Source of the DNA: Stratiolaelaps scimitus
Taxonomy: Eukaryota; Arthropoda; Arachnida; Mesostigmata; Laelapidae
Direction of reading: 5' to 3'
NCBI GenBank assembly: GCA_019614645.1
Contig: JABWDB010000002.1
Coordinates: 24,913,501 to 24,977,500, forward strand
DNA: 64,000 bases
Shown: positions 34,019 to 50,649 of the stretch, piece by piece
Layout of the letters: every line of letters begins with the position of its first letter
Numbering within the stretch: position 1 is the first letter of the stretch
Notes under the pieces: generated by a model
Databases searched by the model: none
The model's input: only the letters and a program-made list of their open reading frames with translations
What the model was told of the DNA's origin: nothing
Program-made: the position numbers and the translations under genes

Positions 34019-37000
34019 TCATTTATCCTGGTCATGCGCTGCCTCATCAGATCGACATGCTTCGTAAGAGAGCCCTGTCGCTTCGGAGAACTTGTACTTG
34101 GCATACTTGCCCGCAGATACGGCGTACACCGGCAGACGACCGTTGTTGTATGAACCGAAAGCACACAAGGATTCCCTGTCCGGCGACACTTTAAAAGTCG
34201 CCTGTGAACGCGCTCCAATTAGGTAACTTAGCGGCCACCAACTCCTTGATACAGTGATGAGAAATAATAGTTGATTAATAATATTATTATTACGCTCTTA
34301 TTAGCCCTATGGCACAAAATATGCCGAGATTGCCAAATATATTAGCTGAAAAACACATTATTGTACACATGACTTTCGTCGTGGAAAACACAAGTTACCC
34401 TCGGAAGGTCCGTATATTTCTCAAAGATCGCATTAGGCTAACGTAAATAAAAATGTTACGTGCTGTTCACGCTATAGTATAATACAGACATTTCGTAGAT
34501 CTATCAGTTTTTGAGTAAATATGTCAAATCCGTCAAGCCGAATCTCGTAGCATAATGTTGAATAAAATACATTTTTTTTATTGATATCGATAAAATCGCA
34601 ATCTCGTCAAATTACCCTGTATTATCGAGGCTGAAGATGTGTACGGTACCCGTGCTAGAAACGCTGCAGAGGTAATCGTTATCGGGTGCGAAATTGATGC
34701 AGTATGTTGTTGCAGGGCTACTGCCACGATAAAATTCGTATAACGTTACCGGCGTCCCCGTTGTGACGGAAAACACCCTTATATAGTTTCCTGTAAGCAC
34801 AGAATTTATGAAAAATTAAGGCTAGTGAAAACAGAGGAAATTGGTAAATCATAGCTAAACTGGACCTTACACGGAAGCTTCGAGTTCAAGAGAACGAAAC
34901 AAGAGACATATATACGGAGTGTGCTCAAGATTAGACAGACATCAAGCAGCTATTGCAAGGTACAGTGTGTAATTATCCAATACTTGGCGTTTACGACTAT
35001 TGGACTGCCAAGTCAAAACCCCTTTCATATTTAAGATTAGGCGTTTTGACAAATAAGTAAATTATTCTATCGATTTTTTGTCGAATAGTAGTCAGCTTCC
35101 CAGATAATCAGGTACAAAATATGTCGTTCATAAGTAAGCGACCTAAGGATTTGTTTGGGATACGGAAATACTTTCGGAACTTTCGTCAAAGCAACAAACC
35201 GTTCTCGCTGGCAGTGGCGATCATACGGCCGGTTTGGTTGAAGGTGATACACGCGAGCTCATGTTTATGGGCATCGATCGTTGTCGAAATCATGGGCGGT
35301 GTGGATATGTCCTCGATGATTATGGACCCAATTTGTTGGCCAGGATAAGCCTAGAGAGAGAGATAGCGAGAGAGAGAAGTGCAACAATGGTAAGTTTGAA
35401 TACAGATAAAACTGAATTCAAGAGCGGAGGTACTGACATTCAAAAAGGGAAGGTGTATGGCAGCCATAAACATTGAGCATAGATGCGACGCAGAGGACTG
35501 GCGACTAGTTTTAAATAACAACAGTTATTGTGTATATTCCTAAATGTCTTCATTGCATATTTACTCCTATAACGACACTTGTGTGTTTATTGCACATGTG
35601 AATCTGGCTGTTTGAATATGTTAGAATCTTGTGTCAACGGTTTATAACAGTAGCATACATCGAACATACATGAAACTATGAGCCCTTCGGCAAAATGAGA
35701 GTAATAACTTCATCTGTCAGAATATCCCCGCTCCTCGTTGTACAAAGCGAAATATTACTCAAACATTGAAGAAGCCGCCGCGCATCAGACGATCGTCCAC
35801 TTTTATGAACAGTTCTTCCCGCCGTAGAGATACGACAACAAGTGCTCCCCGGTATTGAATGCTATTTGGGTTATCTGAGACACTCTGCCAGAGGGACATG
35901 GTGGGTATGAAAGACTAGATGACGTACCAGAATCGTGCGATCATATTTTGAGTTATAGGTCACTTCGCATAGGCCTCTAGGGTTTGGCCGTGTGCCACGC
36001 TCAAGGAGCATTTGTGGGAATGACGCGTCTGGGAACGGGTATACTTGAATTCGATCAAGGCGAACGACAACCAACATTTCACGACGCATACGAACAGCCA
36101 ACACCTGCAAATCAAATGTAACGAGCTGCATTAATTAATCACAAATATTCGATTAGGGAACACCAGGTTAGTTATCTTCTGATCTTTTATGCCACTCTCG
36201 TACTGTGATCATTTTAGTCCACAAGTTTGAACAATTGCAACATAGATATCATACATGTGACACACGCGCGATGAACAATAGAGGATATTTAAGTGACTAA
36301 TTTTGGGAGCAATTAGCCACTCCGTTTGTTGATTCGCTAGCGTTGACTACAGGTAGCTAGTTTAGTAGTGTGTATTGTGGCGCAGGCAAACGTATAGCTA
36401 GTTTCGTTGTAAAACCACAGACAAAATATAGTGAAGATTAATATGTGTTCACCTCATCAGAGAAGCCCAGTTCATGGACAATGGTCATTCTCATTAAGTC
36501 GAAGACTAATACAGCGTTTGCCGCGTTGTGGCCATCGCCGCCAGGTACCAAGGCGAGGTACTTGAAATGATCCTGAATATCCACCTGAAGCAAAATGAAC
36601 AGTAACAACAAGCATAACAAGACTAGTCAACAGTAATTGGCCATTTCATATGCTACCACCGTCTCGCTGTAAGTGGAGTTATGAAGGGAAATGCAGTTAT
36701 CTGGTTTAACAGAGAATCAAATTGAGCAACACCCTATTATTGAGATACATATAAACAGCCTTAAACATATCTGAAAGTTAGATATTGGTATATATGTCTA
36801 TATGGTTAGAACAGACCCTGCTAATTATGAAAGAACTTAAAGCTTTCTTTTGTTTATTCAAATTTCAAATGAACTTGCCTTGCTAATTGGGGGTTGATCT
36901 GGACTATTGGGTATGTGTATAACATGCTTGTATGGCTGTACGGAGCACACGTGGACTCCATCCTCGGCAACGTAGACGTAGAGGGCTGCAAGTAAATCAT

Positions 37001-37361
37001 CAGGGTTATGTTGATCTCGTTAATTGGTTACAGCAGTGCAACTTGCGAACAATGATAAGGACGCATCCCTTGTTGTACTGACAAACCTTAACATATATGG
37101 ATTAAATATATGACACCGCGTACTTTAGTAGATTTCGCTAAAAGCGAGCTCACACCTCTCAAACATCTGACTCATTTGACCTTCTAATCAATCCCAACAG
37201 ACATCAGTGAAATACGTATCATTTATGTTCGTATTGACCAGTCAGCACGCTTATAGGCGTTGGCATAGACAATACCACATCTTCGGCCATTTATTTGAGC
37301 TGCGGCCACTGGACGACAACTACATACTGTGGTTTTCGTTAAAACGAAGCGAGGAAGTCAT
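34019..37361 (-). CDS. WDR45/WIPI4-like PROPPIN, copy A (divergent, 7 exons)
   Basis: Minus-strand coding exons in order: 37361-37328, 36985-36879, 36584-36453, 36104-35928, 35350-35200, 34790-34616, 34244-34019. They give 333 residues and TGA. Phases (1,0,0,0,1,2) equal those of copies B and C. PROPPINs are seven-bladed beta-propellers that bind PI3P and PI(3,5)P2 on autophagic and endosomal membranes. WIPI4 also ties ATG2 to the membrane. Family signatures include SLRFN at the N-terminus, VLAVRMRR, NPRGLCE, AYPGQQIGS, CINFAPD and KYKFSEATG. The lipid motif reads FYRG (220-223) instead of FRRG, and the NQDQ position reads NENH (8-11). Exon 2 ends at a GC donor (AAG|GCAAGT). The final exon is short and ends in charged residues unlike C. 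No stops or frameshifts are seen, so it is probably expressed but functionally altered. Confidence 0.82.
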
Positions 37362-50200: not shown

Positions 50201-50649
50201 AAGCACTGAGACATAAAAATACAATATTATTTATTTTGTAATCATTCAAGCTTGGGCTGAATAAGGTCTACACAATACGCACTTGCACTAAGCCAATCAA
50301 CATACCGCTGTTCTTTTCTTAATGATCTTGTCCAAAACAGAACTGGCTTTCTCTCTCTCTCTCTCTCTCTGCGTCTCGATTTCCAGAAACCGAAAAGCGT
50401 GCCCTTCTCAGAAGTTTGAATCCCACAAACTTTGACAGCTGGTATAGGTCGAGACACAATATGGACGCTTCGATTCAAGTATTCTTATTGACAATTGTTA
50501 TTGTGCGAAGAAAAATATCCCGAGTTGTCGAGCGCGTAGTTTCCTTCTAAGTAAAAGTGGTTCTGGAAATCCACAAAAAGCTTCACACGCATACACTTAC
50601 TTTGGTCTTGGTTAAAACGCAGAGAGTGGACTTTTGTGTTGGAATTCAT
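47204..50649 (-). CDS. WDR45: WDR45/WIPI4 orthologue, PROPPIN copy C (7 exons)
   Basis: Minus-strand coding exons: 50649-50601, 49327-49221, 49024-48893, 48737-48567, 48408-48258, 47887-47707, 47465-47204. They give 350 residues. This copy is closest to vertebrate WDR45: SLRFNQDQ (9-16), VEMLHRSNFLAL, NPKGICELSP, AYPGQKIGS, INAHQSELECIALNQSG, TLIRVFDT, DPATMYCINFSPDDRYLCC, DKGTVHIFA, NRRS and CVDGTFHKYIFSE. The lipid motif FRRG is intact (222-225). The Asn/Asp equivalent to human N15/D17, which contact ATG2, are present (N13, D15). Expected role: autophagosome formation, coupling ATG2 lipid transfer to PI3P membranes. It is the probable parent of copies A and B. It sits head-to-head with the TMEM130-like gene, 1.15 kb apart. 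Confidence 0.92.
48857..48881. repeat. (TA)n microsatellite beside a splice donor
   Basis: The TA tract begins about 11 bases inside the intron that follows exon 3 of PROPPIN copy C. Copy B has a TA tract at the same place (about 42198-42209). Confidence 0.85.

What the first reader, a model, noticed from the sequence alone, without database searches (positions are those of the whole stretch)
34019..50649. Tandem triplication of a WDR45/WIPI4-type PROPPIN
Three complete seven-exon genes lie head-to-tail on the minus strand within 16.6 kb, with identical intron phases and nearly identical internal exon lengths (107, 132, 151 and 175-181 bases). WDR45 is usually single-copy in animals. All three frames are open from ATG to stop. 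This looks like a lineage-specific expansion of an autophagy lipid sensor and is the best candidate here for an undescribed system.
Basis: partly seen in the sequence, partly recalled or inferred. Interest (0 to 1): 0.75.

Follow-up and report, generated by a model that had tools for sequence, protein, structure and literature searches.

The report
Triplicated autophagy WIPI4 genes in mite
A mite related to the honey-bee parasite Varroa carries three old, neighbouring copies of the autophagy gene WIPI4 (WDR45), one ordinary and two fast-evolving, of which one appears to have lost residues that the protein normally uses to read its membrane lipid and to hold its partner ATG2.

Summary
Three complete seven-exon genes lie head to tail on the minus strand (C 50649-47204, B 44212-39691, A 37361-34019) with identical intron phases, open frames and exon-length differences in multiples of three. 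They are not an assembly artefact: proteins are 34-48% identical and introns unrelated. The genome is a mite close to Varroa (C is 95% identical to V. destructor WIPI4 over shared columns). The triplet falls in the Varroa/Tropilaelaps WIPI4 clade (100/99).

The copies are not equivalent. C keeps the lipid-site and ATG2 residues except D84, which is lost in all five sequences of this clade that I compared. B keeps the eleven core lipid-site residues but has D17S and lost the basic residue at WIPI-1 R112. A has FYRG for FRRG, T209N, the R112 site lost, and N61K - the human BPAN substitution that abolishes ATG2A binding - plus D17N. R226, T209 and N61 are conserved in 29-30 of 30 comparison rows. 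dN/dS of 0.3-0.5 and intact frames argue against pseudogenes.

So this is a diverged paralogue cluster in which A is probably no longer a canonical ATG2-recruiting PI3P effector; it is not a new system. Expression, and presence in Varroa itself, could not be tested.

The parts
47204..50649 (-). Gene C: WIPI4 orthologue, 350 aa; exons 50601-50649, 49221-49327, 48893-49024, 48567-48737, 48258-48408, 47707-47887, 47204-47465
   Evidence: Spliced model open ATG to stop; 95% identical to Varroa destructor WIPI4-like over 317 columns
39691..44212 (-). Gene B: diverged WIPI4 paralogue, 340 aa; exons 44173-44212, 43194-43300, 42217-42348, 41740-41898, 40964-41114, 40583-40763, 39691-39943
   Evidence: Spliced model; keeps FRRG and the eleven core PIP-site positions, D17 to S, D84 to H; R110 to L and R112 to Y; PF21032 89.7 bits
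34019..37361 (-). Gene A: diverged WIPI4 paralogue, 333 aa; exons 37328-37361, 36879-36985, 36453-36584, 35928-36104, 35200-35350, 34616-34790, 34019-34244
   Evidence: Spliced model; PF21032 96.9 bits; FYRG, T209N, N61K, D17N, D84L; R112 to M
34729..34731 (-). Codon of Y221 in A: tyrosine in place of the first arginine of FRRG (WIPI-1 R226)
   Evidence: Sequence, alignment: R in 30 of 30 comparison rows
36561..36563 (-). Codon of K55 in A: lysine in place of WIPI4 N61 (the BPAN substitution N61K)
   Evidence: Sequence, alignment: N in 29 of 30 comparison rows, S in 1
36877..36878 (-). GC donor of intron 2 of A (GC-AG intron)
40583..40763 (-). Exon 6 of B, unusually similar to exon 6 of C (141 of 181 bases)
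   Evidence: pS 0.38 against 0.34-0.70 in the other six exons; permutation P 0.011, not corrected for seven exons

Best explanation
Old tandem duplications of a single WIPI4 gene in the mite lineage that includes Varroa left three protein-coding genes. C kept the ancestral job: it binds PI3P on the phagophore through two sites around FRRG and recruits the lipid-transfer protein ATG2. B still has the eleven core lipid-site residues but an altered ATG2 surface and changed residues at the R110 and R112 positions, so it is probably a PI3P effector with weakened or changed ATG2 binding. A lost PIP site 1 (R226Y, T209N) and the ATG2 contact (N61K, D17N) but keeps site 2 and an intact propeller sequence. 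It is most likely a neofunctionalised PROPPIN paralogue that no longer recruits ATG2 and binds the membrane weakly, serving another client or acting as a regulator. Shown: gene structures, descent, residue changes, constraint on sequence. Inferred: expression, binding properties, roles.
For: Three intact seven-exon models with shared phases. WIPI4 clade with Varroa and Tropilaelaps at 100/99, apart from the WIPI3 rows. NG86 dN/dS: A-C 0.43/1.47, B-C 0.44/0.98, A-B 0.70/1.42; 0 of 2000 neutral runs stay open. Residue table. Function of these residues: single alanine changes at WIPI-1 S203, S205, G208, T209, R212, R226, R227, G228, S251, T255 or H257 abolish PI3P binding and puncta (PMC3543385, abstract and passages); each FRRG arginine serves one PIP site (PMC5656675, passages); WIPI4 N61K abolishes colocalisation with ATG2A while D84G has only a minor effect, and the matching Hsv2 changes abolish Atg2 binding in two-hybrid (PMC8682751, passages); WIPI4 N15A/D17A cannot bind ATG2A/B and LTTG loses PI3P binding (PMC10407718, passages).
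Against: No RNA evidence. No close homologue of A or B among about 5.8 billion proteins: A has 5 hits in all, at most 39% identity; B has 683, at most 38% identity among the 120 listed. So neither seems annotated in Varroa as held there; the search needs shared 5-residue words. No AATAAA/ATTAAA within 1500 bases after the stop of A, while C and B have them; A also has a GC donor, and its last acceptor is AAG where the 17 others are CAG or TAG. End branches of A and B are about 2 substitutions per site, so placement is unsure; dS is near saturation. Against B as a full PI3P effector: the R112 position is basic in 29 of 30 comparison rows and in C but Y in B and M in A, and R110 is L in B; WIPI-1 R112A lost PI3P binding in vitro though it still reached autophagosomal membranes. 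No structure was predicted.
Confidence: 0.57

Rival explanations
1. A (and perhaps B) is a young pseudogene or a transcriptionally silent copy that happens not to have acquired a stop yet; its residue losses are relaxed decay.
For: Branches of about 2 substitutions per site; invariant WIPI4 columns kept: A 62 of 111, B 67, C 90; no poly(A) signal within 1500 bases of A, GC donor and AAG acceptor in A; no homologue above 39% found among annotated proteins.
Against: pN well below pS in both comparisons with C; exon-length differences all in multiples of three; 0 of 2000 neutral runs stay open at this divergence; all 18 introns have GT-AG or GC-AG ends.
Confidence: 0.18
2. Dosage or tissue-specific redundancy: all three act as ordinary WIPI4 at different times or in different tissues.
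For: All keep the propeller family match; B keeps the eleven core PIP-site positions and N61.
Against: Loss in A of R226, T209 and N61, and of D17 in A and B, and of the basic R112 position in A and B, predicts loss or change of the canonical activities.
Confidence: 0.12
3. Recent duplication specific to this species, after its split from Varroa, followed by very fast evolution.
For: A+C as one clade is not rejected (AU p 0.41); no A or B homologue above 39% found, Varroa being represented in the database at least by P0001.
Against: A+B+C excluding Varroa is rejected (p 0.007); B+C excluding Varroa is weakly rejected (p 0.038; p values uncorrected and long branches in play); dS of 1.0-1.5 between paralogues while C and Varroa differ at 5% of protein sites; introns share no sequence.
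Confidence: 0.1
4. Assembly artefact or haplotype duplication.
For: None found.
Against: Copies are 34-48% identical in protein and unrelated in introns.
Confidence: 0.01

Closest known systems
WIPI4 / WDR45 (for example Varroa destructor WIPI4-like; human WIPI4, PDB 8kbx)
   Same: C: full-length match, 95% to Varroa over 317 columns; 334.9 bits to human WIPI4 against 222.9 for WIPI3; FRRG, N15, D17, N61 kept
   Different: D84 lost in C, Varroa and Tropilaelaps. B and A are diverged extra copies; A lacks FRRG and N61
WIPI3 / WDR45B
   Same: Same PROPPIN subfamily; the genome has its own WIPI3-like gene at C4:2712362, about 300 codons of it in one exon
   Different: The triplet groups with WIPI4, not WIPI3, across a 100/100 branch
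BCAS3, a PROPPIN relative with a changed motif (LKRG in Dictyostelium)
   Same: A natural variant of FRRG; PI3P binding still shown (PMC8032249, passages)
   Different: LKRG keeps two basic residues; FYRG in A does not. BCAS3 is another family
Human BPAN allele WDR45 N61K
   Same: Same substitution at the homologous site in A (PMC8682751, passages)
   Different: There a disease allele; here the state of a paralogue in this one assembly, beside an intact copy

Membership tests
PROPPIN (Pfam PF21032) | Sequence match over the curated cut-off (30 bits) | tested here: met
   C 113, B 89.7, A 96.9 bits
PROPPIN (Pfam PF21032) | F/LRRG motif, both arginines - copies B and C | tested here: met
   FRRG in B and C
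PROPPIN (Pfam PF21032) | F/LRRG motif, both arginines - copy A | tested here: not met
   FYRG at residues 220-223 of A; A is therefore filed as a WIPI4 paralogue by descent, not as a demonstrated phosphoinositide-binding PROPPIN
PROPPIN (Pfam PF21032) | Seven-bladed propeller fold | not tested
   Spliced proteins fall outside the stated input rule of the structure tool, so none was sent
PROPPIN (Pfam PF21032) | Binding to PI3P / PI(3,5)P2 | not testable with these tools
   Residues only: 11 of 11 core positions compatible in B and C (S203 is T there, as in 28 of 30 comparison rows), 9 of 11 in A; H185 kept in all; R112 position K in C, Y in B, M in A
WIPI4 (WDR45) subfamily | Phylogenetic placement with WIPI4 rather than WIPI3 | tested here: met
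   A, B and C in the WIPI4 clade with Varroa and Tropilaelaps, 100/99
WIPI4 (WDR45) subfamily | ATG2-binding residues N15, D17, N61, D84 - copy C | tested here: inconclusive
   N15, D17, N61 kept; D84 is I (also lost in Varroa and Tropilaelaps)
WIPI4 (WDR45) subfamily | ATG2-binding residues - copy B | tested here: inconclusive
   N15, N61 kept; D17 to S, D84 to H
WIPI4 (WDR45) subfamily | ATG2-binding residues - copy A | tested here: not met
   N15 kept; D17 to N, N61 to K, D84 to L

The most novel reading that the evidence does not exclude
Copy A is a natural PROPPIN turned into something else: a WIPI4 paralogue that has taken on the BPAN substitution N61K and lost PIP site 1, yet is kept by selection beside an intact WIPI4. 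It would act as an ATG2-independent scaffold, or as a negative regulator that occupies site-2 lipid, in a lineage of parasitic mites. Together with B it would show how the lipid-reading and ATG2-recruiting halves of WIPI4 can be separated in evolution.
Probability: 0.3. Interest if true: 0.6.

Novelty: new variant of a known kind. Interest (0 to 1): 0.4.

Why it matters
WIPI4 is usually described as one gene per animal (recalled), and its loss in people causes BPAN. A lineage that keeps an intact copy beside copies that have lost the ATG2 contact or a lipid site is a natural separation-of-function series, and can show whether WIPI4 has roles other than recruiting ATG2. That D84, D in 30 of 30 comparison rows, is lost in all five sequences of this mite clade examined suggests the ATG2 surface shifted in the whole lineage.

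Tried and rejected
Assembly artefact: rejected by divergence. WIPI3 origin: rejected by tree. Fourth copy or remnant: none in the window by tblastn. The family search of the own genome listed 10 matches: 4 in the array on C2, 5 on C29 (WIPI1/2-like) and 1 on C4 (WIPI3-like); its counts are lower bounds, and A itself rang there only by exons 5 and 6, so a further diverged copy elsewhere could have been missed. Recent segmental duplication: 22 stretches (18 introns, 4 flanks or spacers) compared, a single 30-base match. Gene conversion of exon 6 between C and B: a hint only (pS 0.38, P 0.011 uncorrected; exon 2 is as low at 0.34). A+B as one clade: not rejected (p 0.23), so the order of duplications is open. 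Dating by Varroa synteny: no animal genome collection is held for it, and the search for homologous proteins gives no context.

Literature (a library of openly licensed PMC papers only): no paper holds Varroa, autophagy and WDR45 together, none Varroa and phosphoinositide-interacting; nothing on mite WIPI duplication in the rows shown for (15 of 2,968 papers shown; 12 of 33; 12 of 89; 8 of 21). PMC13020874 (passages) treats WDR45/WDR45B as an ancient pair; the word arthropod does not occur in it, though Drosophila is one of its outgroups.

Choices to know: the trees use 35 rows: A, B, C, the own WIPI3-like frame and 31 of 211 held proteins picked by hand for spread. The comparison uses the 30 rows left after taking out A, B, C, Varroa and Tropilaelaps; these 30 hold both WIPI4 and WIPI3 proteins. 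The Varroa row is an isoform lacking 23 residues of exon 6, and the Tropilaelaps row lacks the N-terminal part. Human WIPI4 numbers come from counting along the alignment; WIPI-1 positions from the primer table of PMC3543385 set against the mite sequences by motif, without a WIPI-1 row in the alignment. Mended on checking: the R110/R112 positions were looked at only then, and confidence was lowered from 0.60 to 0.57, the pseudogene rival raised from 0.17 to 0.18, for that.

Full report
WHAT IS THERE. Three genes lie head to tail on the minus strand of a 426-Mb animal genome in 145 contigs (the window is C2:24913501-24977500). Rebuilt from raw sequence they are C (50649-47204, 350 aa), B (44212-39691, 340 aa) and A (37361-34019, 333 aa). 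Each has seven exons. Exons 2, 3 and 5 are 107, 132 and 151 bases in all three; exons 1, 4, 6 and 7 differ by multiples of three; intron phases are the same. Of 18 introns, 17 are GT-AG and one (A, intron 2) is GC-AG. All frames run open from ATG to stop. Protein identities are A-B 33.8%, A-C 46.7%, B-C 47.6%. Introns and spacers share nothing beyond one 30-base match.

WHAT ORGANISM. C's best match is Varroa destructor WIPI4-like isoform X2 (P0001), then Tropilaelaps mercedesae (P0002). Over shared columns C and Varroa are 95% identical. V. destructor and V. jacobsoni are 99.7% identical in sequence (PMC6773775, abstract), so the window is probably neither, but a near relative. The species was not identified.

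WHAT FAMILY. All three match PROPPIN PF21032 well above its cut-off. C scores 334.9 bits against human WIPI4 and 222.9 against WIPI3 in the PDB. In a 35-row tree A, B and C fall with Varroa and Tropilaelaps (100/99) inside WIPI4, away from WIPI3. The genome also has one WIPI3-like gene with about 300 codons in one exon (C4) and one multi-exon gene with an LRRG motif (C29) that I read as WIPI1/2-like. As far as that family search shows (its counts are lower bounds), the PROPPIN set is one, one and three.

AGE. A and B have end branches near 2 substitutions per site against 0.03 for C. AU tests (uncorrected, long branches in play): A+B+C without Varroa rejected, p 0.007; A+B+C+Varroa without Tropilaelaps p 0.052; A+B not rejected, p 0.23; C+Varroa+Tropilaelaps not rejected, p 0.37. 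With A left out, B lies outside Tropilaelaps+Varroa+C (96/90), B+C is weakly rejected (p 0.038) and B+C+Varroa is not (p 0.31). With B left out, A lies beside Varroa+C (97/92), A+C is not rejected (p 0.41), nor is C+Varroa+Tropilaelaps (p 0.23). NG86 dS is 1.47 for A-C, 0.98 for B-C and 1.42 for A-B. B thus appears older than the split from Varroa, while its order with respect to Tropilaelaps and the age of A are unsettled. In about 5.8 billion proteins A found 5 relatives, none above 39% identity, and B 683, none above 38% among the 120 listed, against 88% (with a 23-residue gap) for C and Varroa. If B is as old as the tests suggest, this predicts loss, or missing annotation, in Varroa.

ARE THEY REAL GENES. 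dN is below dS in each pair (0.43/1.47, 0.44/0.98, 0.70/1.42). Neutral substitution of C down to 48% protein identity left no run of 2000 without a stop, mean 8.2 stops. Of 111 columns invariant in 21 WIPI4 rows outside these mites, C keeps 90, B 67, A 62. Against: A has no AATAAA/ATTAAA within 1500 bases after its stop, where C and B do; it has the one GC donor and the one AAG acceptor; and there is no expression evidence.

WHAT CHANGED. Table (30 comparison rows). Core PIP-site residues by WIPI-1 numbering (PMC3543385; passages): S203 (T in 28 of 30 rows and in all five rows of the mite clade), S205, G208, R212, R227, G228, S251, T255 and H257 are compatible in A, B and C. T209 and R226 are kept in B and C and in 30 of 30 rows, but are N and Y in A. 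The first FRRG arginine points into PIP site 1 and the second into site 2 (PMC5656675, passages), so A should have lost site 1 and kept site 2. In WIPI-1 either single arginine change to alanine abolished binding. Two further WIPI-1 residues lost PI3P binding when changed but still reached membranes: H185, kept in A, B and C, and R112, whose position is basic in 29 of 30 rows and in C but M in A and Y in B; R110 is L in B. So B's lipid binding may be altered too. ATG2 residues by WIPI4 numbering: N15 is kept in all three copies. D17 is D in C, S in B, N in A (D in 24, E in 4, gap in 2 rows). N61 is N in C and B and K in A (N in 29, S in 1). D84 is I in C, L in Varroa, F in Tropilaelaps, H in B, L in A (D in 30 of 30), while the neighbouring D83 is kept in all. 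N61K is the human BPAN substitution that abolishes ATG2A colocalisation, D84G having a minor effect (PMC8682751, passages). N15A/D17A cannot bind ATG2A/B, though its expression was also lower (PMC10407718, passages). In A the stretch that should form the membrane loop of blade 6 is shorter and rich in aromatic residues (alignment; the loop assignment is my inference).

HOW IT PROBABLY WORKS. C is the working WIPI4. B is most likely a PI3P effector with a changed ATG2 surface and perhaps changed lipid binding. A is most likely a paralogue that does not recruit ATG2 and binds membrane weakly; its client is unknown. These roles are inferred from residues, not shown. The chief rival is that A is silent and decaying.

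KNOWN OR NEW. Gene and family are known. I found no description of WIPI4 duplication in mites in the searches (no paper) or in the rows shown. The new part is a WIPI4 paralogue that combines a broken FRRG with a natural N61K beside an intact copy.

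Noticed in passing
window 27879-29413 (+): Two neighbouring open frames: the first with an activin/TGF-beta receptor ectodomain (PF01064, 25.5 bits, over its cut-off of 20.9; weak BAMBI match below cut-off), the second with a transmembrane-like stretch (by eye) and no Pfam match: perhaps a BAMBI-like decoy receptor, or a receptor whose kinase exons lie further on.
   Followed up: partly
G000 C4:2712362-2713171 (L009 2300-3199): WIPI3-like gene with about 300 codons in a single exon, unlike the seven-exon WIPI4 genes; a possible retrocopy origin. The last exon was not found in the fetched stretch.
   Followed up: partly
alignment; P0001, P0002, copies A, B, C: WIPI4 D84, D in 30 of 30 comparison rows and linked to ATG2 binding, is lost in all five sequences of this mite clade that were compared, those of Varroa and Tropilaelaps included.
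   Followed up: partly
P0001 (Varroa WIPI4-like isoform X2): This isoform lacks 23 residues at the end of exon 6 that hold three PIP-site residues (S251, T255, H257); a possible lipid-blind splice form or an annotation error.
   Followed up: no
window 38000-38120 (-) and L009 110-180, 340-380: A short shared stretch between B and A and upstream of the WIPI3-like gene, seen by eye, looks like a dispersed repeat.
   Followed up: no
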